Shown here piece after piece: positions 1 to 49,989 of a stretch of DNA of 64,000 nt. Source of the DNA: Paramacrobiotus metropolitanus (taxonomy: Eukaryota > Tardigrada > Eutardigrada > Parachela > Macrobiotidae); contig NW_026570399.1 in assembly GCF_019649055.1 (NCBI RefSeq), positions 120,942-184,941 on the forward strand. Direction: 5' to 3'. A program made the translations under genes and the position numbers. The notes under the pieces were generated by a model. The model was not told where the DNA came from. It made no database searches and saw nothing but the letters and a program-made list of their open reading frames with translations. The first letter of the stretch is position 1, and the number at the start of each line of letters is the position of its first letter.

Positions 1-2068
1 TTGCAAATTCAATTTAATGAAGTCGTCTTGCGTAAATATTTGTGTGTGCTTTTGTAGCATATACACCCTATATGATGTGTTACTTATGTGGAAGGTTTAA
101 CGCTATGGCCTGCCATGCAGTAAATTATAATTAACTCGTAATGGCCTTTACGATGTCATGCCGTTAAGGGTTAATGTAATTAACACTTGTCTATTCACAT
201 GGTTTTACATGTATCAGTACTAGTATCTGTGCCACGGAGAGGTTATGTCAACTTATGTGTGGTTGTTGTAGCAATTGAACAATGTTAAATGTGCCAGTTT
301 CGGTTCAAAAGCTGCATTCGTATATAAGGACCTGTATAATTATTGATGTTCTATTTTCAGCAGTCGGAGACGTTTTGGATCACTCGCAGAACATTCGCCG
401 CCGCTTCTGCTCATTGTTAATCTCCTAAATTCTTGGTAGCCACTGTCCCACTGAGATCGCATAGTGACATCTCTATCCGGATCAACATATTCCACGAGCG
501 TCTGTGGATCAGTATGCATCTGTTTGGAGAAATGCTTTTGTACATAAGATTTTTTGTTGTTTGATTAGGTACGGAAGCCATTGGTCCGTTTCTTATTACT
601 CCCCGGTCAGTATTGACATCCTCAAGGTTAAACGAGCAGCGCAAGAGTCTGTACTGACACGATAGAGGTGAATTTTGAACGTCAAGCTCCAATGGGAGGA
701 CCGGTTATGCCTGAGCGATGTCCAAGTGCTGCGAACTGGACGAGAAAATTTAATTTTATGAAGAATGTTTTATATCATAACGAAACGAAAGTATAATTCT
801 CTATAGTGTCAAGGTGTCTTGCCAGCTATAACATGTGCGTACTGCGTACTATCTTATTCTGTACCATATGTACGTGCGCACGATATCAATTAAAAACAAA
901 CAATCTTAAATTCAATGTGGGATTGCGCGAATACCGTTTATGAGAATATGTATCACAAGCTTCGGCTAACTCAGACGAAGTGTGCTGTGTTGCCTTCCGA
1001 TCCCGCTGTCGACTCTGGTTGTGCGACGAACGGCTTTCTTTGACTCTTAAATACAGAAAACTTGGGCCTGGTTCTCAACTACTATATGTAATAATTATAA
1101 TAGTTCAGAACCAAGCCCAAGTTTAAAAGAATTTTTAAGCAAGAAGCTTCCCTAGTTTACAGTTATGAGCCATGTAATTTGGTACTGTATACTATAGCTA
1201 CGTTTTACATACCAGTCTTAACAGAAGGGCCGGTCTGTACTGTACAATAATAGTATGTACAGTATAAGAGCTCTTTTAATATTGATAATTCACTTCTTAT
1301 TATTTTAAACATGAAGCGCACAGGCTATGTCAATCAACTGATTCAAGCTTAATACAATCCATGCAGACATTTCTTAAGTACTTAAGTAAAAAATTTCAAA
1401 CGTATAGAATTAATTTATTCTGTAAATTGTTTCTGTACTTAATTAGTTATATGCTCTGTACTTCAACCTCAAATTTACTGCTACCGCTCCTGTGATATAA
1501 GAAGCGTACGCCCAGCTGCGCGCTTCCGTAACAAAGCAAAATATAATAAAAATTATTACGCACTTCGGTAACGTTTACAAAGAAACTGCTAGTTATTATT
1601 ACGGCCTAATTGCTCATATATTAGTATGCTGGTCTTAAGTTAAACCATCCTCAGTGGACCTGCAAGTAAGTTGTATGCACAAAGCCGTAACTGGATTGCA
1701 AGTAACCGATCAAGCTCGCTAGAAAACGTTTTACAAAGTTGCGCCACCGGCAAGAAAGAACCCAAACTAAATCTGGTAGTTACATACTTATATAACCAGT
1801 GCATTAGCCTGCTCTGTAATTTTCCGCGGTTTGCGGTACACCCCACACTTGATCAATGTCAAAATTATCCCACAAATTGCGGTTGTTGGAAGAAAATTTG
1901 TGACGAGCTGTCAGTGTCTCACCTAAAAAGCAATCACAATGTACAAGAAATTGATTCCTGGCACAAGAACAAAATATTCTCGATACCTCGGCCACTCTTC
2001 ATTTCCCTAAAGGCACAATTAAATCGCAATTAAGAATTTTCCGAGGAAGATATTACCTGTGCACGTTC
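1..2068. other. Upstream intergenic DNA without a recognisable gene
   Basis: AT-rich sequence. Reading frames are short, and I recognise no protein family in any of them. The only structured element seen is the long hairpin at 1058-1124. From about 1816 onward the sequence is the promoter-side part of a tandem duplication, because it matches 4443 onward. Confidence 0.6.
1058..1124. repeat. 67-nt near-perfect hairpin (inverted repeat)
   Basis: Arms 1058-1075 and 1107-1124 are 18-bp reverse complements with one mismatch (core CTTGGGCCTGGTTCT against AGAACCAAGCCCAAG). The pairing continues inward for about nine more bases (AACTACTAT against ATAATAGTT, one mismatch), leaving a small AT-rich loop. 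The size and shape resemble a microRNA precursor or a tiny foldback transposon. No flanking target duplication is obvious. Confidence 0.7.
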
Positions 2069-2069
2069 T

Positions 2070-2082
2070 GAGTATATATAAT
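2070..2082 (+). promoter_or_regulatory. Putative TATA box of the 2155-3572 gene
   Basis: The string TATATAATTAAT lies about 80 bases before the start codon at 2155. The duplicated copy has a comparable AT-rich string upstream of 4762. This is a position-based call only. Confidence 0.4.
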
Positions 2083-2154
2083 TAATGTAACATTATCCAT
2101 AAAGCCTTGTTGAGAAACGCGATCATCTACCGACTGTACCACCATACCGCCATA

Positions 2155-3572
2155 ATGTTCGACATCCGGCACCTGGCTTTTCTGTTGCTTTGCGCTGCAC
2201 CGTTGAGTTACGGAGGCCTTACGATCATCAAGAATGCTTTCGAACTTCCCAATGTGGCCAACACCGGCGTCACACTGACCGGTCGCACCCTGAAATACCA
2301 ATGCCGGCATCTGCAGCCCGATTTCGGAGGGCTCTCCGCCGTATGCCAGACCATCACGAAATGCCCGGCTGGATCAGCGCAAGTGCGTGTCAAAAGCACA
2401 ATTCCGGAGGAGTTCAGTAAGAAGGCGGCAAAATACCATTTTGACTGGCAGTGCGAAGGCGACAATCGCGTTATGTTGGTTGACTACCAGCCAGGTAAGC
2501 CTAGGTTAAACTTTCGCGATTTTGGCATTTATATAATTTCGGAAAAATATCCGGCACAATTTTTCCTTCATTGCGCACTAGAACAGCAGTTTTTTATTGC
2601 TGCATAATTAAGCATGATATCTGCTGAGAAAATTAATTCAAGGACAAACCGCTATTATAGTAAAATGTAAAGTTATAAAATTAGGTAATAAATATCTAAT
2701 TCGGTATGAATCTACGAATTTAGCATAATATTATGTGCTTTAATAATTACGTAATAAAATAAACGATTTTATTCAGATAAGGGTACAGTCGGTTTGAAGG
2801 ATGCCAACAACGGATCTAAAGTGATCCGCCAAGACACACCTTATTTCGCCACGTGCGCTTACTTCGAAGACCAAGCCAAGAAGAACATTCTGGAATGCTA
2901 CAATTTCGAGTACTGTTCGTATCAGAGTGGAAAACTGGTATGCGCCGGTATCCCAGCCTACGGCGGTACATGGACCGGCGACATGAAAAGCGGTACAGAG
3001 CACCTATTTTACCATATATACCGCAGTTATGATTCACACTAATTCTTATTCCACTTTATTATTTATGGTGTTTTTTTTTATAGGATTGACGGGAAAATTT
3101 GACACAGTATTCCGTAAGCACAAATTGACACAAAACAATTTTCAAATCAATTGAAAAATCAATTTTCAAATATTAACCTATTTCCGGTTTTGCAGAACCT
3201 AACCGACGCAATACTTGCGATCCACCGGCACCAAAATCTAGCGCAAAAAGCAACGCCAAGCCGAAGTGCACGTGCAAGCAGGCACGCGACGAAGCGTTCG
3301 TACCGCTGGGTAGGATTGGAAATTTCTAGTTCCCTTTTAAATTAAACTTGTGCAGAAAGCATTGTATGTCTTCAACACTTTGTTGGAAATAACCGGTAAA
3401 TTCCTTTTCAGGACTGGATAGCTTCGGACCAAGCTGCACTAAAGAGGGCAAATATAACAAACTGCAGTTGGATTCTCACGGTTCGAGCGCGTTTTGCGTC
3501 GATGAGAATTACGTTATGACATCATCTACGCCGGCTTCACTACCGGCGGAAGCGGTGCCAACTTGTGCTTAA
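2155..3572 (+). CDS. Secreted cysteine-rich protein with C-terminal thyroglobulin type-1-like domain, five exons
   Basis: Exons by eye: 2155-2494, 2777-2992, 3084-3113, 3196-3309 and 3412-3572. All four introns are GT-AG and phase 1, and together the exons give 287 codons without a stop. The start is the ATG that opens a clear signal peptide (MFDIRHLAFLLLCAAPLSYG). Residues ~20-190 are an unrecognised cysteine-rich region (CRHLQP, CQTITKC, CAYFED, YNFEYCSY). The last two exons hold CTCKQAR, then CTKEGKYNKLQ and AFCVDEN, the pattern of a thyroglobulin type-1 module. It is split by an intron where the 30-50 kb cluster genes are also split. Such modules often inhibit or bind proteases; that role is inferred. 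The neighbouring copy at 4762-6384 is broken, so this is probably the working member. Confidence 0.75.
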
Positions 3573-4761
3573 ACATATCGCGGAAACGTTAAGCTGCTGC
3601 CTTTTATAAATGCCATAATGGCTACCACTTTGGGTGGATGTCTACTGTAGATTCGTAGAAGCATGATGGATTGTGAATACGAGAAGAAGACGCCGGAAGA
3701 AAACAAATCATATCACCCTTGACAATAATCAAACCCTTATGTTTCTGGACGAAGCAATTCAAGTAATAATAAAGGTATCATGCATGGTACCCTACACCGT
3801 ATTTACAAAACTAGTGAAGTAGGAGAACTTCACATTTGAGCTTTATTTCCACTTATAGCATATGTAAAAGGCGTTTATATTCCATATTGCGCGAAATAAC
3901 GATTCCCAGTACATTGGTAGGAAAGTCTGTCGTTGGTGTAGTGGTTCCACTCAACCCTACAATTATTTTTCTGAGAACGTGTATGAGCGTACAAAAACAA
4001 ACAAAATATATTATACGATGCTTATAAGTTGAATATGTATATACAGGTACTGGTAAGTACGTACAGAAGGTACAGAAAACTGCAATAATTACAATGTACT
4101 TCACACAAAGAAATGCTGTTTGCTGAAAGATTTATTTACTATCCAGCTACATATATTACGTGTGTTATAAAAGTTTTGCGGGCACGGTTTGTCTCTTTAC
4201 TTGCACTATCATTTCCGGCGCAAGAATGTTGCACCCGACGCTTTTTGCTGCCGTTGATTCCAGTCTATTTCACCAATAAATTCGGTAAGGTCCAGATCGG
4301 TGGTGCTGCATCGTGGTAGTTGCGGGTATGAAAAATGGTCGACCATTTTTCAGAGCCAGGTGAAATGTAAGAGTCGGATCCAGATATAAGGGGGAGGAAC
4401 GTGGGCTCTCAAATTATAACCGGTGCATTACATTTCTTTATTATTCCGCGGTTTGCGGTGCACCTTACACTTTGTCAATGTCAAATTACACAATTCCGGC
4501 TGGCAGAAGAAAAATTAACCAGCTGTCAAATGCTTCAGCCTAAAAAAGCGTCCATAACGTACCAAAACTGGTCCCTGGCACCAGAAGAATGCATTCTCGA
4601 CACCTGACCATTTTTTATTTTCCTAAAGGCACAGTTATACCACAATTAGCTGCTTTCCGAGGAATATATCTGTATATGTTTTTGTAATATTCTAAATTAA
4701 GCCGGCCTTTTTCTGAACAGCGAACGTTTACCGACTGTTCGTACCACTGCACACCACCATA

Positions 4762-35370: not shown

Positions 35371-35829
35371 TTAATAAATCACAGTGTTGTCACAAGCACA
35401 CTGAAGTCTGGAGGGTTCTGGTTGCCGCTCGCTGATTTGGTTACCGTTTCTGTCGACAAAAAATACGGCTTGGTGTTTCGTACCGATATTATACGAGCTC
35501 TGAAGTGGACTCTATGATCCGTTTTTCTCGCACGAATGCAGTCCTGGCCTACAGAAAATGGTTTTCCTAACGCTATAAAATTAAATAAAACATTGCTGTA
35601 GTACTACGGAACGACATCGTACAGCACCAAATATTTTATGCCGTGAAGTTTACGTACCTTGCCTTATCTGTTCACGAGCTGCTATACAGCCTATACACGT
35701 GCATCCATCCATATTGCGTCGTCCTTGAATTGTTTTTCCATTGGGTAATGTAACTGTTCCCTTTCTAAGGCACAGTCTGGCGTTGCCTACTAATATCAGG
35801 ACGAGTACAACCAAAACTGCGGTTTGCAT
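35371..35829 (-). pseudogene. Broken thyroglobulin type-1-like gene
   Basis: Exon 1 (35829-35658) is intact with signal peptide MQTAVLVVLVLILVGNA and RLCLRKGTVTLPNGKTIQG. It has a 9-bp insertion giving CTCIGCIAARE instead of CTCKAARE. Exon 2 (35548-35371) is damaged three ways compared with 47820-48001. About 7 bases are missing before the TCGTGCGAG block (frameshift), the conserved Trp codon after KNGS is TAG, and the FCVD cysteine is Phe (FFVD). Confidence 0.75.
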
Positions 35830-36604
35830 TCTTCAGTGTTTAAAGGTAAACTTTCTAACCACGAACGATCTGCTTTTTAAACCTTCGCAAAGCAAGATGC
35901 ATGCCACATAACGAAAGAAGGCCATCCTTTATGTACTTGCAAAATTCAAACGCGTAATTATTTCTGGAGGGGACGTTCAGTCACGTTCTGTAGTCTGATT
36001 TCGTACTGATAATTAGGTAGGACGCTCAGCCAATTATAAAATTTTCGCACTAGCCAACGTGCATGATATTGCCAGGTAATTTGCTGTGCTTCTACAATTT
36101 TGTTTTCTACAAAATTCGGAAACAATCTGTCGCTAACTGGATTAACGCATTTCATAGCAAAAACGTGCTGGTACTCACTGAGAAAAAATCGTTATTATCT
36201 GTAGTTAGAGAGCATTGGCTTTTTTTTCTGCGGAAGAAATATTTTGTTAGCACTAACTGGACAAGGCATTTCGTGGTAAATCACTGCGTCGTCGAAGTAC
36301 ACTGAATGTTTGAGGACTGCGGGCGCCGCTAGCTTATCTGGTTGTCGTTCCTGTCGACACAGAAAACACCAGTGCTTTCCGTCCGGACATTCCATGACTT
36401 TTGAAGTGTCTCCATGATCCATTCTTTTCACAGGAAGCAGCGTGTGGTCTTGGTCTACTCGTATAGAAAACAGATCTCTTAATTTCCATAAAATTTGATA
36501 AATATTGCCATCTTACTACGGAACGATAACGTGTATAGCACATAATACATATATATTTTATGGAGTAAAGGTAACGTACATGTCATTAATTTTCTTCTTC
36601 ACGA

Positions 36605-36864
36605 TGTAACGTGGGGCCTTATGGGCGCCCACGTACCTTCGACGGCGAAACAGCGGAGAACCCGGATTGAGGCTTTAATGCCGAAATCTAAGGTGCGCAC
36701 CGTGGCGCAGCAAACACCGACTAATGAGATCGGATCCTACAGCCAGCGCAGCTGTGCTGTAGGTCCGTCAAACACCACAGAAATGTGTGGGATGGAAATC
36801 CCCAGAAACAGCGAAACACAACGGCGAATGGCCAATCGTGAAGGCGGAGCTATCGGCCTTCACA
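36605..36864 (-). repeat. 3' LTR of the TRIM-like element
   Basis: By eye identical to 37784-38043. The minus-strand element enters here last, and the host duplication ACGA adjoins it at 36601-36604. Confidence 0.85.
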
Positions 36865-37771
36865 TCCCTGTACTGTCCAACACTGAGCCCCTGCGAAGTG
36901 CATGAAAATGGCGGTATGCGCCGTAAATAAGAAAATGTACGAAGTCATGTCAGTATGCATGCAGTACAAGTAACATAAAATCAAATGAGAAAAAACACTG
37001 CGTAGTACAGGCCCGTCCCTGTACTACGTCCAATTGACTTTACTACCGGATACACGGTTCCACTTCGGGCGGCTTACGGTCCGGCTCGGTCAGTCCAGGT
37101 CGGGTAAGGTGATCCGGTCGGCTCAGTCTTGTCGGCTCGAGTCCGGTTCAGCTCAGGTCGGGTTCCGGGTCAGGTCGGCTCCGGTTCGGTCAGAGGTCGA
37201 CCTATTGGGTCAACGCACTGTCGCGAAAGATCCAGGGTCCAACCCGGAAACAGGAAAGTTCCGTGGTTTCTTCAGCAGGGAAAGGTCACGTTCTGGGAAA
37301 ATTTGGGCAGGGGTTTGGGGCATCGGTACGCTCGTGACCCTGCAAACAAACAAATACGCTGCTCCGGTGGGGATATTCCACTGCTCCGTCAGGGTGAAGA
37401 TCGCCATCCCAGGAAATACGGGCAGGGCTCTGGTGGGGGGAATTCTTCGGCGTGATGCTGGTGGTCGATCCGGCCGTAGGGATCGGAGTTGGTGCTGCTG
37501 GTCGCGGTGTATCCGTTCTGGTTTCCCGCTGAATCCGGGCCGCGTCCGCCGTCGGCATCGCAGGAGGCGATTCTCGCTCTGCGGCATCTCCATCGCCTTC
37601 TGGTGGAGGCATCCAACGCGGTCCGCATTGGGGTGCGTTCTGCACGGCAGGTGGGTTTCCCGGGGGGCTACGGATGGAGCTCCACACTCGGGGGTTGCAT
37701 TGGCAGCGATCCGGTCCACAACCCAGAAGTGCTGCGTGCGCGGGAGCGCGCGTAGCTGGGACTGTCAGCCA

Positions 37772-37783
37772 GCTCTGCTACCA
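37772..37783 (-). other. Primer-binding site complementary to initiator-Met tRNA
   Basis: Minus-strand TGGTAGCAGAGC starts at the first base after the LTR. On the plus strand it reads GCTCTGCTACCA, ending like a mature tRNA with CCA. Confidence 0.85.
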
Positions 37784-38043
37784 TGTAACGTGGGGCCTTA
37801 TGGGCGCCCACGTACCTTCGACGGCGAAACAGCGGAGAACCCGGATTGAGGCTTTAATGCCGAAATCTAAGGTGCGCACCGTGGCGCAGCAAACACCGAC
37901 TAATGAGATCGGATCCTACAGCCAGCGCAGCTGTGCTGTAGGTCCGTCAAACACCACAGAAATGTGTGGGATGGAAATCCCCAGAAACAGCGAAACACAA
38001 CGGCGAATGGCCAATCGTGAAGGCGGAGCTATCGGCCTTCACA
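37784..38043 (-). repeat. 5' LTR of the TRIM-like element
   Basis: By eye identical to 36605-36864. It directly abuts the tRNA primer-binding site at 37783-37772. Identity of the two LTRs implies recent insertion. Confidence 0.85.
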
Positions 38044-38361
38044 ACGAGCTGCTCTACAACTGCATCCGCCAACACTGACTTGACCGTGAATTGTATTCCC
38101 ATTGGCTAAGGTAACGGTTTTGGTAGTCAGACGCTGATCTGCGTAAGAGCTGACCACTGACACAAGAACGAGTGCAGTCAAAACTGCGCTTTTCGCTTCA
38201 GTAACAAAATTTCAAGTATGACACATGTACGGTTTCGTGTGTTAACCAAGCAATACAAGATATGTGCCACATAATGGCATAAGCCACCCTTATTTATTTC
38301 CCTGAAAAATCGTAATTATCTCTCGAGGGCAGCTTTCTTAGATAGGTTTCCGTGCTAATAG

Positions 38362-40372: not shown

Positions 40373-42368
40373 CTGTAGCCGCTAGATGAAGTGGCTCCAC
40401 TGTTAGATCCGGGCGCTGCCTTCCCCTTGTCGGGCATTGAGCACGGTGCTTACCGCCAACGGGCAGCGCACACGTAAAGTTTACTTTCGTTCATTTTATT
40501 TTAGTACAGCACTCTTTTACTTTGGTAAACCGTTTTCTATCTCACAGGTACCATCACTCTCTAAAATACTATCACTGAATAAACTAATCTCCATTTCAGA
40601 ATCGCTTTCATAAACTAGATTTTCCTTATCCATTTCAGAGCTCTCATAATCATTTTCAGAGCTCTCATAATCATGATCTCGGTCATCATTCTTAAGCACC
40701 TGAGCAGCGAAAAACGATTTACGGACAAGATCTGGGGTTACGCTTTGCCATGCACGAGAGATCATATCCAGGAAGTCTTGGCGCCCTGGCTTCTTCAGAT
40801 ATCCCGATTTTGTTACTTCATGATGAGTTGCTCTCCAAAGCTGATATTCGCTGCGAAAAGAGGCCTTCATTGCTTTGTTAACGCTGACGTCAAGGGGCTG
40901 ATAATCGCCTGTGCGACCAGCAGGCACGAAGATTTGCTCGACATTTCGTTCTCTAAGTAGGAGCTCCGATGGTTCTTTTTTGTGGACAGGTGCCTGGTCT
41001 CGAATTAAAACACGCTCCTGCTTTTCTTCTGGAAATGTATACTTTATCCAGTCCAGATCCATCTGCTCCGTCCACCAAGTAGAATAAGAGCTCTCAACAA
41101 AAATATTAGGAGGAACTTTCAGCTTGTTCATTATCCCTTCTGACAGCTTCCCATTCTTTCCCCCCTTTAGCACCACTACAGCAGGATATTTTCCACCATC
41201 CGCACGGATCGTGAGAGACACAGTTATTCCTTCTTTTTCGCCAGGAGGCTGTTTAACAGTAACCTACAAAGCCGTCCACAGTCAGCTTTCCAGAGGAACC
41301 CCCCCCCCCGCTGGTTGCCAGGGGCACCCCAAAAACCACAACAAACCAGATTCATAAAATTAATAAAAATATCAGAGCTCTCATAATTCTCATATCTTTT
41401 GTTATAAATGTTTGTTATAAGTTGATTAAAAGCTATAGAATTACTTCTTTCACTCCAATGGGAGAAAGTGTTTTCGGTTTCGGCGCTACAAGGCGAATCA
41501 TCGTCTGATCGAAATTGAATACGCGGTCAGCGAAAATTTCATCCAGAACGATGGAATTGTGTAAGCGGAGAAAATACTCTAGCTCTTCTTCCTGTTTTTT
41601 AAAAAAATGGTCAGAGCTCTGATTTATAATGTTAAAAAAATTCAACTTACCAGATCTTCCTCTGTGAATTCAGACTTGCGAGCATGTCGAGTTGGGACAC
41701 GATATCGCAGGCATTTTCTCTTTAAAAAGCAAGTAAGCCAACAGTCTGAAGCCTTGAAGGTAGGAGCTCCTTTCGCCTGGGCTAACTCCAGCGCTCTTTT
41801 TTTCAGCTCCAGACGTGTCACAATAAGACCCTTCTTCCGCTCGGCCAGGAGAAATTCGTACAAGGCGTCCTCTATGCCTGAGTGCTCCGGCTTTCGCTTG
41901 TGTTTCTGCTTTCGAAGAGGCTCGTTCTTCCTCAACCTGCTGCAGGTAGACTGGCTGCTTCCAAGAAAACGCAAGAAGATAATTAATTAAAAATCTAGCT
42001 GTACCTTTTCCAGCGCGTGAAAGTTCTCCATGGAACTCCGATGTTATTTGCGTAACTCCGTGCGCTCACATCAGCGGCAGCAAAACCGATCAGAAATGCA
42101 CGAATCTGTTCCTCTGTATAACCACGCTGCTTTCGGCCCATTACGACAAATTAGAGCTCTGATTTAAATGCTATCCACAGCCGAAATGCAATTATTCACT
42201 ATAAAACCAAGCTCAGGTTCACAATTTTGGTGTAAAAACCCGTTAAAATGAATTAAAATCAAAATGCAGCAAAAATTCAATTTTTTTATTCAATTCAGCG
42301 TATGTATATACGTAGTGCCTTTTCTCGTACACCAAACTCTGTGGAGCCACTTCATCTAGCGGCTACAG
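40373..42368 (-). mobile_element. Pogo/Tigger-like DNA transposon inserted in the RT gene
   Basis: Perfect 28-bp inverted repeats (CTGTAGCCGCTAGATGAAGT... at 40373 and its complement ending at 42368) are flanked by TA (40371-40372 and 42369-42370), the Tc1/mariner-pogo target. Removing the element and one TA joins the RT reading frame (CAT TTA TTA GGT; HLLG). It carries a multi-exon transposase on the minus strand. Confidence 0.9.
40517..42141 (-). CDS. Pogo-like transposase (HTH, CENP-B-type DNA binding, DDD domain), four exons
   Basis: Exon 1 (42141-42005) encodes MGRKQRGYTEEQIRAF and a helix-turn-helix (ARSYANNIGVPWRTFTRW). Exon 2 (~41966-41642) encodes the CENP-B-type HTH (ERKKGLIVTRLELKKRALE, CWLTCFLKR). 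Exon 3 (~41630-41440) holds the first catalytic Asp in VFNFDQTMI. Exon 4 (~41262-40517) holds the second in VLIRDQAPVH and the third in YQPLDVSVNKAM. The order of domains and the DDD triad fit pogo/Tigger. No inactivating change was seen, so the enzyme may be active. A run of 11 C at about 41303-41313 lies in the last intron. Splice sites of exons 2-4 are approximate. Confidence 0.75.
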
Positions 42369-42370
42369 TA

Positions 42371-43305
42371 TTAGGTTATCTTTTGGAAGAAGCGTACAAT
42401 TTTGACACTGTGGTGTCGTTCGGCTTAAGATCTGGTCCATGGTTATTGGATGCATTCGCTATCGTGCTAGAATGGGTTTTTCGTACATGCACAGGAAACG
42501 ACTCGTTTTTGCATTACCTTTATGATTTTTTCGAAGTAGACGAACCAGAGAGTGACAGTTGTCGTAGAGGAATGATGCAGTGTGTTTCGGTCTGTAATTA
42601 TCTAGGCGTTCCCGTTAGTTTGAAGAAATTGGTAGGGCCCACAACAAAAATTGAATTCCTTGGCATTGCTTTAGATAGTGACGATTTCATCTTGTCAGTG
42701 TCAGATGGTCGCTTGGAAAAACTAAAATCATTACTACATTCTTTTTCTGTTAAGGATCAGTGTACGAAACGTGAATTGTTAAGTTTGATCGGGTGCTTAT
42801 CTTTTGTAACAAAATGCATCCCAGCGAGTCGCATATTTCTTAGACGTATGATTCAGCTGAGCTGTGCTGCAATCCGCTTGCATCACAAAATAGATCTGTC
42901 GGAAGAGTTCAGGCGAGATGTTTATTGGTGGCAGGAGTTTCTGCCATTGTGGAATGGAACAGCTAGTTTTCTTAGCCCAATGTGGGAAAGTGCTGAATCT
43001 TTGCACTTTTTTACTGACGCATCTGGTTCTGTTGGCTATGCAGGTGTTTTTGAATCTGAGTGGTTCCAAGATAGATGGCCCAGCTGGTTGCTTAATCAGC
43101 AAGTATCGATTGCTTTTTGGAGTTGTATCCAATATATATAGCATGCGTTTTCTGGGGTAAACGTGTGTCTACGCAAAAAATTGTGATTCATAGTGATAAT
43201 ACTGGTACCGTAAAGGCGTGGTCTCGTGGTAAATGCCGAAACATCGGTATCATGGAAGTAATAAGGCGTATTCATTTTGTTAGTTCACATTTTAATCCCA
43301 TTTAA
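42371..43305 (+). pseudogene. Reverse transcriptase C-terminal half and RNase H (YR retroelement)
   Basis: It continues the RT across the pogo insertion with FGLRSGPWLLDAF. The catalytic motif expected as YLDD reads YLYDFF, so one essential Asp is replaced by Tyr. The connection domain (LGVPVSLKKLVGPTTKIEFL) and RNase H follow: FFTDASGSVGYAG (first Asp), ELYPIYIACVFWGKR (Glu) and IHSDNTGTVKAW (second Asp). A one-base frame break at ~43115-43120 splits the RNase H. The frame ends at 43305 inside the terminal repeat. Confidence 0.75.
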
Positions 43306-43365
43306 CGCACAAGCGTTAAATGAGGTTCACGCAGAGCGAGAGAGGGTGTCTTGGCAACAACGGAA
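43292..43365. repeat. Terminal repeat alpha, copy 1
   Basis: 74 bp, matching 46610-46683 with one difference. It contains the palindrome TTTAACGC-ACAA-GCGTTAAA and ends ...CAACGGAA. Here it is joined to repeat beta; at 46683 it is joined to repeat delta. Confidence 0.85.
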
Positions 43366-43509
43366 TGGATTCCGACGGACAGAGGAATCCGGGTATTACG
43401 ACAAACGACACGCCCCTTTAATAGTTGTCTCTCTGTTAGAGTTGAATGCTAGGTGAACTGGTATGAATTGGAGGATGTACAGCGCTAACTTGTGTCACTT
43501 GCCAGAGTA
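43366..43509. repeat. Repeat beta, copy 1
   Basis: 144 bp, nearly identical to 45413-45556. It contains the small hairpin GGATTCC...GGAATCC. Confidence 0.85.
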
Positions 43510-43578
43510 AAATTTATCGATCGCTGTTTTTTACGTTACCGTTTTCGCATTTACATATCATCATGTCTGTTACACTCG

Positions 43579-44652
43579 ATGAATCTGAAGAAGTTGGGCC
43601 GTCTGAATCTCACAGAGGTCAAACGGCTCATCGTCGAAGTTGAAGGCGAGCAAGCGTTCGATGAAACGAAATCTGCTCTTGTCCAGCGATTTCATGACCT
43701 GTTCCTTCCGGAAGAATCTCTGGATTTGGAAGTCGATGCTGCAGCAGGTAAAGGTGACTCCCCATCTGACCTCGCTACAGCCATCGGCATTTCCGCGGCG
43801 TCTGTTTCCTAGCTGTACGACAACGGATATAACTCCATTGACGATGTCATCTTGTTGGCAAAGGTTAAGAATTTCCCCGACAACTTGGAATTCATCACGA
43901 ACACCCGCGATCGCAACAAGCTTGAAGTGTTTGTTATGCCCCACGTTACCATGTCTTCTTTCGTGACATCCGCAAGCGACAATGTTGCCCCCGTCGGAGC
44001 CGTTCGTTCAACTACACGTACAAGCAATTACCACCAGGCAGCCTCTGACGACGAGAGTTCCGGCAGTCCAGTTAGCGCTCACCGCAAATCCAACAGCGGC
44101 TCCAGTACCTCCACTCAGGCCCGAAATCTTCCAAGACCGCATACAAGCCCATTCGTGAAAGCAGCCCACAAGGCCGCAAACGATGTTAAGCCGCATGAAA
44201 TTTCATGCGACGAACTTTTTGCCGGCAACATCATGGCAGCGTTGGATTTGGCAAGGAAGACCAACGCCTTACCAACCCTGATCGAGTTCCTGGAATACCA
44301 GGTCTTTTTGGCTCGCAAACGTTGCATGTATGATGATGAAGCCATTGTGCAAGCGAGTTTCGCGAAGCCGCTCAGACTGAGGACTTTGACCTTTCCGACA
44401 TTTCGCATCGCGACTCCACGGCTGATGCATATTTTTCGGCGGATTCCGTCGAACGTCGGGTTTCAAGTTTGTAGCCCAAAGGTCACTGTTGCACAGGCGA
44501 AACGTTCAGCCACCGTGGAACCCCGTTTTCCGAATTACTGCTGTTTCAACTACAACGAAAACAGACCTTGCCGGGATATCCCTTGCCGTTTCCCACACAT
44601 TTGCGGTTTCTGCCGGAAGGACCATCGCGCCACGGCCTGCACCGAGCAATGA
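43579..44652 (+). CDS. Gag-like protein with SAP-like start and C-terminal CCCH/zinc cluster; one in-frame stop
   Basis: The first ~45 residues (MNLKKLGRLNLTEVKRLIVE, then TKSALVQRFHDLF) look like a SAP DNA-binding fold, as in DIRS-type gag proteins. A Ser/Thr-rich middle follows. A folded helical stretch then reads SCDELFAGNIMAALDLAR. The end holds a cysteine/histidine cluster (CCFNYNENRPCRDIPCRF, then HICGFCRKDHRATAC). A TAG at 43810-43812 interrupts the otherwise single frame, so this is either readthrough or a recent nonsense mutation. It belongs to the gag-only element at 43366-45412. Confidence 0.65.
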
Positions 44653-45320
44653 CCTCCATTCAGCATGACCTGTTGAATTCCGGGTTGGTTACCTCTGCCT
44701 ACATTTTTCCGAGACGATTGTTTTCTTTAACTTTTGACCCGGATTTGCCTGCTTCGTGCTGTAACCTTTCCATGCATCATTATTCCCCCATATCCTGTGT
44801 CCGCCCCGCATTGTGCCTGCCTGCTTTTATATTACATTGGACATTTTTTCAGCCCCGTTGCGTATACTCTTTGCCTTCTTGAATGTAACTACTCACTTGT
44901 GTATGCCTTTTTGCGGTTATAGCCTTCCGTATCTGCTTGGATTTACGTCAAACTGTGGAATTCCCAGTTCGACTACAACCTTCATTTGCCTTGCTATATT
45001 CCGTGGGATGCGACAGGACTTCCTTGCACCCTGCTTTATGCATGCGATCTGGCGACTGCTTGCATCCTTAAATGCCGTACAGATACTGCGCTGGCTGCTT
45101 TAGTTACTGCTTTTGTGGATCCCTTAATTTGGTATTACTTTCGCGAATGCCGAACAATGCGCGGAATCCCGCGCCTTTGGTATCGTGATTAGCTGTTTCC
45201 CTTGAATTCAGGGAATCGGCCTACTTTATCGTTGCAAACCTATCGCACTTTCGTTGCTCTCATTACGCGGTACTGGATCGCCTCCCGTCTTTCTTGTGTT
45301 TTTGCCTTGGGTTTTTGGGG

Positions 45321-45412
45321 TTGGGGCCGTTTCCGGCCATGTTCGGCATATCTGCCCAAAGGAAGTAAATTCCGAGCCCACCTTTCTTGCGTGACGTGTA
45401 GGAGTAATGGAA
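45321..45412. repeat. Repeat gamma, copy 1
   Basis: 92 bp, matching 45600-45691 and ending GGAGTAATGGAA. Here it is joined to beta. Confidence 0.85.
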
Positions 45413-45691
45413 TGGATTCCGACGGACAGAGGAATCCGGGTATTACGACAAACGACACGCCCCTATAACAGTTGTCTCTCTGCTAGAGTTGAATGCTAGG
45501 TGAACTGGTATAAATTGGAGAATGTACAGCGCTAACTTGTGTCACTTGCCAGAGTATAATTTTTCTTGTTTTTGTTGTGCTTTTTCTCTGTTTGATGGCT
45601 TGGGGCCGTTTCCGGCCATGTTCGGCATATCTGCCCAAAGGAAGTAAATTCCGAGCCCACCTTTCTTGCGTGACGTGTAGGAGTAATGGAA
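45413..45691. mobile_element. 279-bp deletion derivative of the gag-only element
   Basis: It consists of beta (45413-45556), 43 bp of T-rich filler and gamma (45600-45691). It sits directly after the full-length copy with no bases between, so the two copies form a tandem at the same target. Confidence 0.85.
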
Positions 45692-46683
45692 AATATCCTG
45701 CTGATACTTCATGACCTCACTGCCACAAAACTTTTCGTGAACGCAAAAATTTTTGTATGAGAAGACAACGTACACAGATGTTAGCGATATCGCCTGGTAT
45801 AGGGAAGATACGGCCATAATGGCAGACGTTATCCGAACAGTCCGATGCCCGATCCTACTTCCGTGTCAGCTGTTACAACTGCGCAGTCGTCGGGCATTCC
45901 ACCTTATGGTTGCTTTATTTGCAAAGACGCGCACCGTTATGCAAATCAGTGTCCGCAGCGGATGACAGGCTCCTCCAGCATGCCACCAGCTAACCCTACC
46001 CCATCCAGCCAGAGCCAAGCAATCCTGCAGCCACCCCGTTCCCCGCGCATTGTAATCTGTCGCGATTACAACAACGGACGTTCCAAACCCATGTCCGCAT
46101 CGTCGCATTCATGTCTGCGACCAGTGCTACGACACTTTCCAAATCCGTACATTCCATAGCTCAATTCCCGCCTAACCACCATTCTTTCTCATCGTTACTC
46201 CTTGTTAATTCCTTCTTTTATCATCCTCTCTTTCCTGTTTACCTCTACTCCAATCACATTTGCTTACTTCCTCGCTTAATACAATCCTTCCATTTTATTA
46301 CTGATTATTCTATAATGCACGCTTCTATCATATTTCTAACAATTTTCCTTGCTAACTTTCCCTTCCTTGCAATAAAATCTTGAAACTTCTGTTACCGATT
46401 ATTATGTTTATAAGTTTTTTATGCCCGTTTGCTGTTCTCCGCGCGGTTGGGGCTGCCTGTCGGTTTGGAGGTGTCCGGCGCGGCTTGTATCAAGACCCGG
46501 TGACCAGCGGCGCCCTTCAGTGCGTCGTCTGGACATTGCCGGGTCTGATCACTTGCCCCGGCATCCTCAAGCGGCAAAAGGCGGCGTTCGCGAGCGAGCT
46601 CGACAAGCGTTAATCCCATTTAACGCACAAGCGTTAAATGAGGTTAACGCAGAGCGAGAGAGGGTGTCTTGGCAACAACGGAA
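45692..46683 (+). mobile_element. YR-element segment bounded by repeats delta and alpha, with gag zinc-knuckle relic
   Basis: It begins with repeat delta (45692-45758), which matches 46684-46750, and ends with repeat alpha (46610-46683). Between them a frame at ~45840-46160 carries CFICKDAHRYANQCP (a CCHC-type knuckle) and ICRDYNNGR, the end of another gag whose frame then breaks. The rest (46160-46440) is T/C-rich and non-coding. Confidence 0.65.
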
Positions 46684-47005
46684 AACATCCTGCTGATACT
46701 TCATGACCACACTGCCACAAAACTTTTCGTGAACGCAAAAATTTTTGTATCCCTCCCACCCGCCGCTTATCACACGCACAGCAGATGCGTTTTTCCTTCA
46801 TACGCGCAGCAGATGCGTCTTCCTTCTTTCTTACGCACAGCAGATGCGATAAATGTTCTGCACATTGCAAATTTGTCAAATTCGAAATGTTGTTTTTTTT
46901 ATGTCATGGATGTTGTTGTGATATATTGTTCAACAAAGGGGTGTCCCGCGCGGCTTGTATCAAAACCCGGTGACCGGCGGCGCCCTACAGTGCGTCGTCT
47001 GGACA
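46469..47005. repeat. Pair of 66-bp direct repeats (epsilon)
   Basis: 46469-46534 and 46940-47005 share GCGGCTTGTATCAA, CCCGGTGACC and GTGCGTCGTCTGGACA, with few differences. They bracket the alpha-delta junction at 46683/46684. Confidence 0.8.
46773..46850. repeat. Three-copy minisatellite
   Basis: ACGC(A/G)CAGCAGATGCG occurs three times about 30 bp apart, separated by T/C-rich spacers. Each unit has CGCA...TGCG dyad symmetry. Confidence 0.75.
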
Positions 47006-47012
47006 AGTCATT

Positions 47013-47644
47013 TTGGAAGGTGCTAGGAGACTGACTCCTGCAAAGGTGGATCAGCGGTTGCCAATAACGATGAATCTTCTGCGACAATTGTGTTCTCGTC
47101 TGCATTACGCGTCCCTGGATCTCTACGACCAGAACATGTTTGGGGCGACTTTTTCGTTAGCGCAACATTTTCTTTTACGTGTCAGTGAATATACCAGCGC
47201 TGCACCTGGACATTTTAACCCTGCTGTCACGTTATGCCTGGAAGACGTATATTATGATAGCTTTTGTTGCGTATCACCATTAAGCAATCCAAAACGGACC
47301 AGCGGCGGGATGGAATCACATTGACAATGACTCGGGTCGAATCACCAACTGTTCATGACGCTTGTGTAGCCTATGGTGACGTTCGCCGCAGCCTGCATGC
47401 AACGCAGTTGCCTTTCTTCATACATGCCAGTGGACGATTCCTTACGCGCACTGACGTTACCGATGCACTGCGGAAATGTCTGCCGGATGGATGTGATCGC
47501 ACGCGTTATTCTTCACACAGCTTCCGCATTGGCGGAGCAACATCAGCCGCAGCGGATGGCCAATCAGTTGATGCCATTTGCCGGAGAGGAAGATGGAAAT
47601 CTACATCGTTTCAGCGCTACATTCGACCATCAGGCAACACCTAA
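47013..47644 (+). pseudogene. Tyrosine recombinase of the YR retroelement (one frameshift)
   Basis: It catalyses strand exchange for integration of DIRS/Ngaro-type elements. The first frame contains AQHFLLRVSEYTS (catalytic Arg). After a one-base frame change near 47265 the second contains ITIKQSKTDQ (Lys), SSHSFRIGGATSA (His-X-X-Arg) and FQRYIRPSG (Tyr nucleophile). All catalytic residues are present, so only the frameshift makes it non-functional. It ends 180 bp before host sequence resumes. Confidence 0.8.
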
Positions 47645-47819: not shown

Positions 47820-48280
47820 TCACTGTCTCGTGGAAGCGCATCGAAGCCTGAAGGATTGCGGTTGTGGTAGCCGTTCGCTGATCTGGTTGCCGTTCCTGTC
47901 GACGCAAAATACGTCGTGGTCTTTCGTATCGAGATTTCACTCTCTCTGAAGTGGACTCCATGATCCATCTTTCTCGCACGAAGGCAGGGTACCGTCTTGG
48001 CCTACAGAAAACGGTTCTCTTAAATGCTATGGAATTCTTTAGAATGCTGTCACGTACTTTGTACTACGGAGCGACATCTTGTAGTACTTACTATCTTATG
48101 CTGTGAAGGTAACGTACCTTGCATTTCCTGCTCACGAGCTGCTTTACAAGTGCATCCGTCCATATTCCGGCGTCCTTGAATCGTTTCTCCACCGGGTAAC
48201 GTAACGGTTCCGGGCCTAAGACACATTCTAGCACTGGCCACTGACATCAGAGCGAGTACGACCAAAAGAGCGATTTTCAT
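47820..48280 (-). pseudogene. Thyroglobulin type-1-like gene with a single nonsense codon
   Basis: Exon 1 (48280-48118) has signal peptide MKIALLVVLALMSVASARMC, then GTVTLPGGETIQGRRN and GCTCKAARE. Exon 2 (48001-47820) has SCEKDGSWSPLQ, FCVDRNGNQIS and LRC. Splice sites and frame are good, but the conserved Trp codon is TGA (47939-47937). Everything else looks intact, so the loss is recent, or the stop is a sequence error or is read through. Confidence 0.75.
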
Positions 48281-49703: not shown

Positions 49704-49874
49704 TCACTGTGTCGTCGAATTACACCGAAGTTTGAAGGATTGCGGGCGTCGTTCGCTTATCTGGTTACCGTTCCTGTCGACACAAAACACATCGTGATTT
49801 TCCGTCTGGACATTCCACGACTTCTGAAGCGGACTCCATGATCCCTCCTTCTCACACGAAGGCAGCGTGTTATC
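49704..49874 (-). pseudogene. Orphan second exon of a thyroglobulin type-1-like gene
   Basis: It is open from a good acceptor (GACCAG) to a stop: TLPSCEKEGSWSPLQKSW, FCVDRNGNQISERRPQ, LRC. It is the best preserved exon 2 of the minus-strand subfamily, but no exon 1 follows upstream. Similarity to the other copies stops at about 49990, suggesting a deletion or rearrangement breakpoint there. Confidence 0.65.
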
Positions 49875-49989
49875 CTGGTCTAAGCAAAACAGTTCTATTA
49901 ATTCCTGTAAAATGCGGTTAAAGTTGTCATCATATTACGGAACGATACCGTGTAGAGCTCTTTATAATATATAATGTCGTGAAGGTTAT

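What the first reader, a model, noticed from the sequence alone, without database searches (positions are those of the whole stretch)
43292..46750. Four-way junction swap (alpha-beta, gamma-beta, gamma-delta, alpha-delta) at a shared GGAA point
Four repeated blocks meet in all four combinations at exactly the same base: alpha|beta (43365/43366), gamma|beta (45412/45413), gamma|delta (45691/45692) and alpha|delta (46683/46684). Both left-hand blocks end in GGAA. The simplest reading is that alpha-delta is an empty target, still intact at 46683. Into a second copy of it two [beta...gamma] elements (2,047 bp and 279 bp) inserted back to back without a target duplication. That is what conservative tyrosine-recombinase integration would produce, and it shows a gag-only element hitch-hiking on a DIRS/Ngaro-like recombinase and homing to the terminal junction of another YR element. 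Repeat copies and coordinates are seen directly; the mechanism is inferred.
Basis: partly seen in the sequence, partly recalled or inferred. Interest (0 to 1): 0.88.

Follow-up and report, generated by a model that had tools for sequence, protein, structure and literature searches.

The report
Nested gag-only Ngaro-like retrotransposon in tardigrade
In what appears to be a tardigrade genome, the four-way repeat junction is the normal end structure of one jumping element that carries only a coat-protein (gag) gene, sitting inside another such element; the gag-only family looks old and seems to have been selected to keep its gag gene.

Summary
The four repeats and all four junctions are real. 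They are not two elements inserted back to back. Beta-gag-gamma|beta-gamma is one element with the split direct repeats (A1-ORF-B1A2-B2) known from Ngaro/PAT/VIPER tyrosine-recombinase (YR) retrotransposons. Paired B repeats of this kind occur at 17 loci of a genome that is probably Paramacrobiotus metropolitanus. The 'empty site' alpha-delta is the second A repeat of another split-repeat element whose first A repeat was hit; that element sits in a third, RT/RH-YR element, whose relative L076 shows the uninterrupted site. GGAA is the element's own left end plus microhomology: 2 of 28 right flanks begin GGA. The target preference seen is three bases, RAY, like the B tip AAT (22 of 26 left flanks). 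A lineage with matching ends and Gag, RT/RH and YR was found, though no intact copy. Gag-only subfamilies share a ~650-bp noncoding block not detected in the one autonomous copy compared; their gag shows dN/dS 0.15-0.32 at dS 0.79-1.43: an old gag-bearing satellite. I saw no gag-only YR retroelement in my paper searches. Mobilisation in trans is inferred.

The parts
43362..45687 (+). Gag-only non-autonomous split-direct-repeat YR retroelement (whole insertion, 2,326 bp); equivalent to 43366-45691 because of GGAA microhomology
   Evidence: boundaries from other copies
43362..43518 (+). A1 repeat (begins GGAATGGATTCC, with a 7-bp inverted repeat GGATTCC/GGAATCC seen by eye); 150 of 157 identical to A2
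43563..44652 (+). gag (ORF1) remnant, broken by stop(s) and frameshift(s) in this copy; start placed by eye; ends in a Cys/His-rich motif (by eye). Open frames of 383 aa hold the gag in copies C148 and C1:1006k
44653..45310 (+). Noncoding post-gag block alignable with other gag-only and with gag-less family members; no match detected in the autonomous copy C63
45311..45408 (+). B1 repeat
45409..45565 (+). A2 repeat, abutting B1 (B1A2 junction ...GTAAT|GGAATGG...)
45590..45687 (+). B2 repeat, right end of the element (...GGAGTAAT); 94 of 98 identical to B1
43297..43361 (+). Host SDR element, left part of its A1 repeat (alpha)
45688..45758 (+). Host SDR element, right part of its A1 repeat (delta), displaced by the insertion
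45759..46469 (+). Host SDR element internal region, with a zinc-knuckle-like fragment in ORF 45803-46159 (motif by eye)
46470..46614 (+). Host SDR element B1 repeat (ends ...GCGTTAAT)
46615..46750 (+). Host SDR element A2 repeat, uninterrupted; serves as the empty-site control
46940..47005 (+). Host SDR element B2 repeat, truncated (66 of about 140 bp)
42257..43296 (+). Third (carrier) element, RT/RH part; aligns with relative L076 up to 43296 (...TTTTAAT)
47006..47644 (+). Carrier element tyrosine recombinase, frameshifted; about 440 bp of carrier missing between RH and here, by comparison with L076

Best explanation
Three nested YR elements. A DIRS-order RT/RH-YR element was hit by a short split-direct-repeat (SDR) element, and the first A repeat of that element was then hit by a gag-only SDR element (A1-gag-B1A2-B2, 2,326 bp). 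The four-way junction swap is the B1A2 junction of the inner element plus its two ends, together with the host's own second A repeat. The inner element encodes neither RT nor recombinase. It most likely moves when the RT/RH and YR of a lineage with matching A/B ends (copies at C63 and C109:334k) act on it: reverse transcription, a circle whose B|A joint reads AAT|GGAN, then recombination of that joint with a 3-bp RAY site, leaving no target duplication. The gag-only form arose long ago and has kept its gag under selection. Shown: the repeats, the layout at other loci, two uninterrupted sites (host A2; carrier relative L076), the target bias, matching ends on an RT/RH-YR lineage, low dN/dS in gag. 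Inferred: the circle, cross-mobilisation, one origin of the gag-only form, and that Gag works for its own element.
For: Repeats and spacing. 59 B-core sites at up to 3 mismatches against 0 for the reversed control: 17 loci with B repeats 275-303 bp apart (one a triple) and 24 single sites. A1/B1A2/B2 order in other copies. C63: A1, 412-aa Gag, RT/RH, 377-aa YR (PF00589 31.1 bits, cutoff 27.1), B1A2, B2; B 87-88% identical to gamma over 65-71 bp. C109:334k: A2 100% identical to C63's A over 164 bp, B repeats 95-96% to C63's B, and an RT stretch of about 300 bp that C63 lacks. Left flanks: RAY in 19 of 23 tabulated against a background of 0.060-0.085; with C4 and C109:298k and C109:334k, 22 of 26. 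Right flanks of 28 B2 ends show no fixed base. L076 reads ...ATTTTAAT|TTTGC where the window reads ...ATTTTAAT|CCCATT. Gag dN/dS 0.15-0.32 at dS 0.79-1.43 between gag-only subfamilies and 0.34-1.23 within subfamilies. Shared post-gag block, reversed control empty.
Against: No intact autonomous copy was found: C63 lacks part of RT; C109:334k has only the first 93 bp of A1 before it departs from C63, stops in gag and YR, and a rearranged second A/RT stretch; C79 and C379 are fragments. Beyond the tips the A repeats of gag-only and autonomous elements match weakly (37 bp at 76%). In the gag tree the autonomous copy falls outside only by midpoint rooting; several nodes have supports of 44-71, and in the unrooted tree C63 pairs with C35 at 46, so gag exchange with autonomous elements, or more than one origin, is not excluded. 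dS near or above 1 is close to saturation, comparisons with C63 were saturated, and stops were skipped, so dN/dS values are rough. Four of 26 left flanks do not fit RAY. No RNA, circle or transposition data were available.
Confidence: 0.87

Rival explanations
1. One reading: two [beta...gamma] elements (2,047 and 279 bp) inserted one after the other into a GGAA-marked junction, homing to it.
For: All four junctions exist. Solo A-B units of about 275 bp occur elsewhere (C30, C13, C131, C129, and C102 with an insert of about 200 bp), and C85 has one extra A-B unit in tandem, so A-B units can stand alone or multiply.
Against: The paired-B arrangement recurs at 17 loci, and the RT/RH-YR relatives C63 and C109:334k have B1A2-B2 too. 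GGA follows B2 in 2 of 28 cases.
Confidence: 0.04
2. The gag-only elements are simply decayed internal-deletion products of autonomous copies, with no life of their own.
For: The window copy is itself broken, within-subfamily dN/dS is 0.34-1.23, and the gag tree does not place the autonomous copy with support.
Against: Three subfamilies compared (window/C1/C61, C4/C109:298k, C148) share the same post-gag block, with no match detected in autonomous copy C63, and keep low dN/dS at high dS. C148 and C1:1006k both hold the gag in an open frame of 383 aa.
Confidence: 0.12
3. Assembly collapse or mis-joining of similar repeats created the pattern.
For: Repeats this similar can mislead assembly; no reads were available to check.
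Against: The same architecture with different flanks recurs on different contigs.
Confidence: 0.02

Closest known systems
Ngaro-like YR retrotransposons (split direct repeats A1-[ORFs]-B1A2B2)
   Same: Same terminal architecture (PMC8547959, section 11 read; PMC9210276, passages), B1A2 downstream of YR in the autonomous relative, solo AB units as in Cafeteria. Ngaro elements are already reported from tardigrades (PMC4157794, passage: Hypsibius dujardini; PMC11071193, passage)
   Different: The window element keeps only gag; RT/RH and YR are absent and a ~650-bp noncoding block lies there instead
VIPER and its short derivative SIRE (trypanosomes)
   Same: A1...B1A2B2 order; SIRE corresponds to the region of A2 and B2 (PMC6681497, passages), like the solo A-B units here
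   Different: SIRE as described there carries no gag; different host group
TR-GAG and gag-only Copia elements
   Same: Non-autonomous retroelement with a single gag ORF (PMC12477816, passage on Copia-N1 of Ectocarpus; TR-GAG seen in search listing only)
   Different: Those are LTR elements (integrase-dependent, recalled); this has split direct repeats and a YR-encoding relative
DIRS1-like integration model
   Same: Circle joint recombining with a 3-bp genomic match, no duplication (PMC3266345, passage)
   Different: DIRS1 has inverted terminal repeats; here direct split repeats, and a degenerate RAY rather than an identical triplet

Membership tests
Ngaro-like YR retrotransposons | Split direct repeats A1-ORFs-B1A2-B2 | tested here: met
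Ngaro-like YR retrotransposons | RT/RH and YR encoded | tested here: not met
   The window element has gag only. In the relative C63 YR matches PF00589 above cutoff; RVT_1 matches below cutoff (18.0 bits, cutoff 29.6) over its C-terminal third, C63 having an RT gap; C109:334k has the missing RT stretch. The window element is filed as a non-autonomous relative, not as an autonomous Ngaro.
Ngaro-like YR retrotransposons | No methyltransferase domain | tested here: met
   In C63 the RT/RH frame (1999-3321) and the YR frame (3083-4213) overlap, leaving no room between; no MT among Pfam matches of the Gag, RT/RH and YR frames
Ngaro-like YR retrotransposons | RT/YR phylogenetic placement within Ngaro | not tested
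   No named reference set was aligned; placement rests on layout
Ngaro-like YR retrotransposons | Insertion without target duplication | tested here: met
   Window insertion compared with the host's own A2 repeat: no duplication beyond the AAC/AAT and GGAA ambiguity
DIRS1-like | Inverted terminal repeats and internal complementary regions | tested here: not met
   Direct, not inverted, repeats
PAT-like | Methyltransferase domain with split direct repeats | tested here: not met
   No MT in the relative C63
TR-GAG (LTR gag-only elements) | Long terminal repeats | tested here: not met
   Ends are split A/B repeats

The most novel reading that the evidence does not exclude
A long-lived Gag-bearing satellite of a tyrosine-recombinase retrotransposon: an old lineage that gave up RT and recombinase but keeps its own Gag under purifying selection, outnumbers the autonomous-lineage copies found in this genome (about 11 gag-only loci against 4, both lower bounds from capped searches), and has spawned gag-less sub-satellites with the same ends. 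It would be the YR-order counterpart of TR-GAG, in an animal.
Probability: 0.55. Interest if true: 0.6.

Novelty: new variant of a known kind. Interest (0 to 1): 0.45.

Why it matters
SDR elements carry their own empty-site control (the second A repeat), so a nested insertion like this one shows the integration joint of a Ngaro-like element to the base. It gives a concrete target rule (RAY next to AAT|GGAN) that can be tested. A gag-only YR lineage that keeps its Gag under selection raises a testable question in a poorly studied order: does Gag act mainly on its own RNA, and why would a satellite keep a structural gene while discarding the enzymes?

Tried and rejected
Considered and rejected: homing to GGAA (right flanks); two successive insertions; an autonomous partner among the carrier-type YRs (of 24 YR loci examined, 0 carried gamma/beta-like ends; only part of the 150 listed YR places was fetched); Pfam identification of gag (0 families); PDB relatives of gag (one hit at E 0.65, tristetraprolin). 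NCBIfam gave nothing for RT/RH or YR. Gag homologues in the large protein set: 2, both from Paramacrobiotus metropolitanus. Structure prediction was not used. In one search the post-gag tree did not run (files absent); only the gag tree did. One search failed by a wrong pattern and was redone; one spurious row (L022, second match) was dropped, leaving 28 of 29; its base counts still include it. The gag-relic reading of the gag-less elements is by eye, not scored. 'No gag match' in gag-less loci refers to about 1.5 kb upstream of B1, not to A1-proximal DNA beyond it. Left flanks of several copies (C40, C42, C85, C233, C1:1006k, C9:1351k, C41) were not read or not usable.
Full report
What is in the sequence. 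The order is alpha | beta - gag - gamma | beta - gamma | delta ... alpha - delta. Written as A and B repeats, beta-gag-gamma|beta-gamma is A1-gag-B1A2-B2, the split direct repeat layout described for Ngaro, PAT and VIPER elements (PMC8547959, section 11 read; PMC4157794, PMC6681497 and PMC9210276, passages read). It is one element of 2,326 bp, not two.

Genome copies. The window lies in an unnamed 170-Mb genome. Two gag relatives named Paramacrobiotus metropolitanus sit on contigs of 4,484,719 and 455,855 bases, the lengths of C1 and C109, so the genome is very probably that tardigrade. A 33-base B core occurs 59 times (up to 3 mismatches; reversed control 0): 16 pairs and one triple spaced 275-303 bp, and 24 single sites. 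I read the full A1-gag-B1A2-B2 order in six copies: the window, C1:382k, C61, C4, C109:298k and C148. Nine of the 17 paired loci (C154, C81, C254, C17, C42, C169, C57, C40, C85) gave no gag match in the roughly 1.5 kb read upstream of B1. Solo A-B units also occur (C30, C13, C131, C129, and C102 with an insert), as reported for Cafeteria Ngaro elements and for SIRE. C85 has an extra A-B unit in tandem.

Boundaries and target. In other copies GGAN stands immediately before TGGATTC at A1 and at B1A2 (GGAACGGATTC in C148, GGGACGGATTC in C4 and C109:298k, TGAT in the C85 joints), while B2 ends in ...AAT (ATT in C42) and is followed by unrelated DNA. So GGAN is the element's left end. In the window the target happened to read AAC|GGAA, giving 4 bp of ambiguity. 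Of 28 B2 ends, 2 are followed by GGA (window and C42). The bases just left of the element are not random: RAY in 19 of 23 tabulated left flanks against a background of 0.060-0.085 in the window, and in 22 of 26 when C4, C109:298k and C109:334k are added. The exceptions are C13 (AAA), C9:643k (ATC), C53 (GTC) and C57 (TAT). RAY resembles the B tip AAT, as expected if a B|A circle joint recombines over about 3 bp, the model described for DIRS1 (PMC3266345, passage).

The nest. The host is a second SDR family: A1 (alpha+delta), an internal part with a zinc-knuckle-like fragment (by eye), B1 46470-46614, A2 46615-46750, and a truncated B2 to 47005; relatives have a B of about 140 bp. Its A1 and A2 match at 133 of 136 positions, those of the inner element at 150 of 157, with B at 94 of 98; these counts do not resolve the order of insertion, which follows from the nesting. 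B-like repeats of the host family lie just downstream of YR genes (C209, C32). The host sits in a carrier RT/RH-YR element. Its relative L076 runs through ...ATTTTAAT|TTTGC where the window has ...ATTTTAAT|CCC, and about 440 bp of carrier plus the end of the host B2 are missing on the right.

The partner. Gag and YR searches (capped lists) found a lineage with gamma-like B repeats. C63 has A1, a 412-aa Gag, RT/RH with an internal RT gap, a 377-aa YR above the Pfam cutoff, B1A2 and B2. A copy at C109:334k-339k has an A2 identical to C63's A over 164 bp and B1A2-B2 beyond its YR and the RT stretch that C63 lacks (about 300 bp). But only the first 93 bp of its A1 match before it departs, its gag and YR matches hold stops, and it contains a rearranged second A/RT stretch. 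C79 and C379 hold fragments. No intact copy was found among these four.

The gag-only lineage looks old. Gag-only subfamilies (window/C1/C61; C4/C9/C233/C109/C41; C148/C1b; C35) differ by dS 0.79-1.43 with dN/dS 0.15-0.32; pairs inside a subfamily give 0.34-1.23. I read this as constraint along the lineages and decay after insertion. The dS values are near saturation, comparisons with C63 were saturated (dN 0.32-0.41), and stops were skipped, so the ratios are rough. C35 and C41 showed no gamma-like B repeat in the stretch read, and C9:1351k has a single B, so not all are complete. The post-gag ~650 bp is alignable between the three subfamilies compared (e.g. C148-window 61.5% over 673 columns, E 1e-28) and partly to five gag-less members; it found no match in the 4,003 bp of C63 used, and the reversed control gave none. 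It was not compared with the C109:334k copy. The gag tree puts C63 outside only by midpoint, several supports being 44-71, and unrooted pairs C63 with C35 at 46, so repeated gag capture is not excluded.

Literature. In the listings of searches (YR elements; TR-GAG, tardigrades), and in the passages I opened, I saw no gag-only YR retrotransposon; most listed papers were not opened. Gag-only Copia families are described in Ectocarpus (PMC12477816, passage). Ngaro elements are already reported from tardigrades (PMC4157794 and PMC11071193, passages). Much subscription literature, including the primary Ngaro/PAT papers, is not held, so novelty is provisional.

Verdict. The four-way swap itself is ordinary SDR anatomy in a nest. 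What is worth keeping is the apparently selected, long-lived gag-only lineage and the base-level target rule.

Noticed in passing
window 40517-41526 (-): A DDE_1 transposase remnant (PF03184, E 4.6e-19; pogo/Tigger type by recall) lies within the carrier element's RT region, a further layer of nesting.
   Followed up: partly
G000 C85:573622-574283 (L029): B-A-B-A-B: one extra A-B unit in tandem, 278 bp spacing, with TGAT instead of GGAT at both A joints.
   Followed up: no
L013, L016, L026 and relatives: Gag-less family members (about 1.84-1.90 kb between A1 and A2 where both were listed) share the ends and part of the post-gag block; by eye they begin with a relic of the gag N-terminus, possibly a retained packaging region.
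   Followed up: partly
G000 C109 (place within the contig not determined): A public gene model named spermine oxidase-like (P0002) includes a stretch 85% identical to this gag over 23% of the query; perhaps a gene-model artefact or an exonised fragment.
   Followed up: no
L074, L075, L076, L081, L084, L088, L093, L094: YR loci in this genome with 97-100% identical direct repeats beside the YR, mostly ending in TTAA(T): probably recently active SDR families.
   Followed up: partly
window 36601-36881 / 37780-38060: 281-nt direct repeat, 97% identical, upstream of the carrier element.
   Followed up: no
window 35416-35589, 47862-48035, 49740-49913: Three copies of a 174-nt repeat (67% and 76% to the reference copy) on both sides of the nest.
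   Followed up: no
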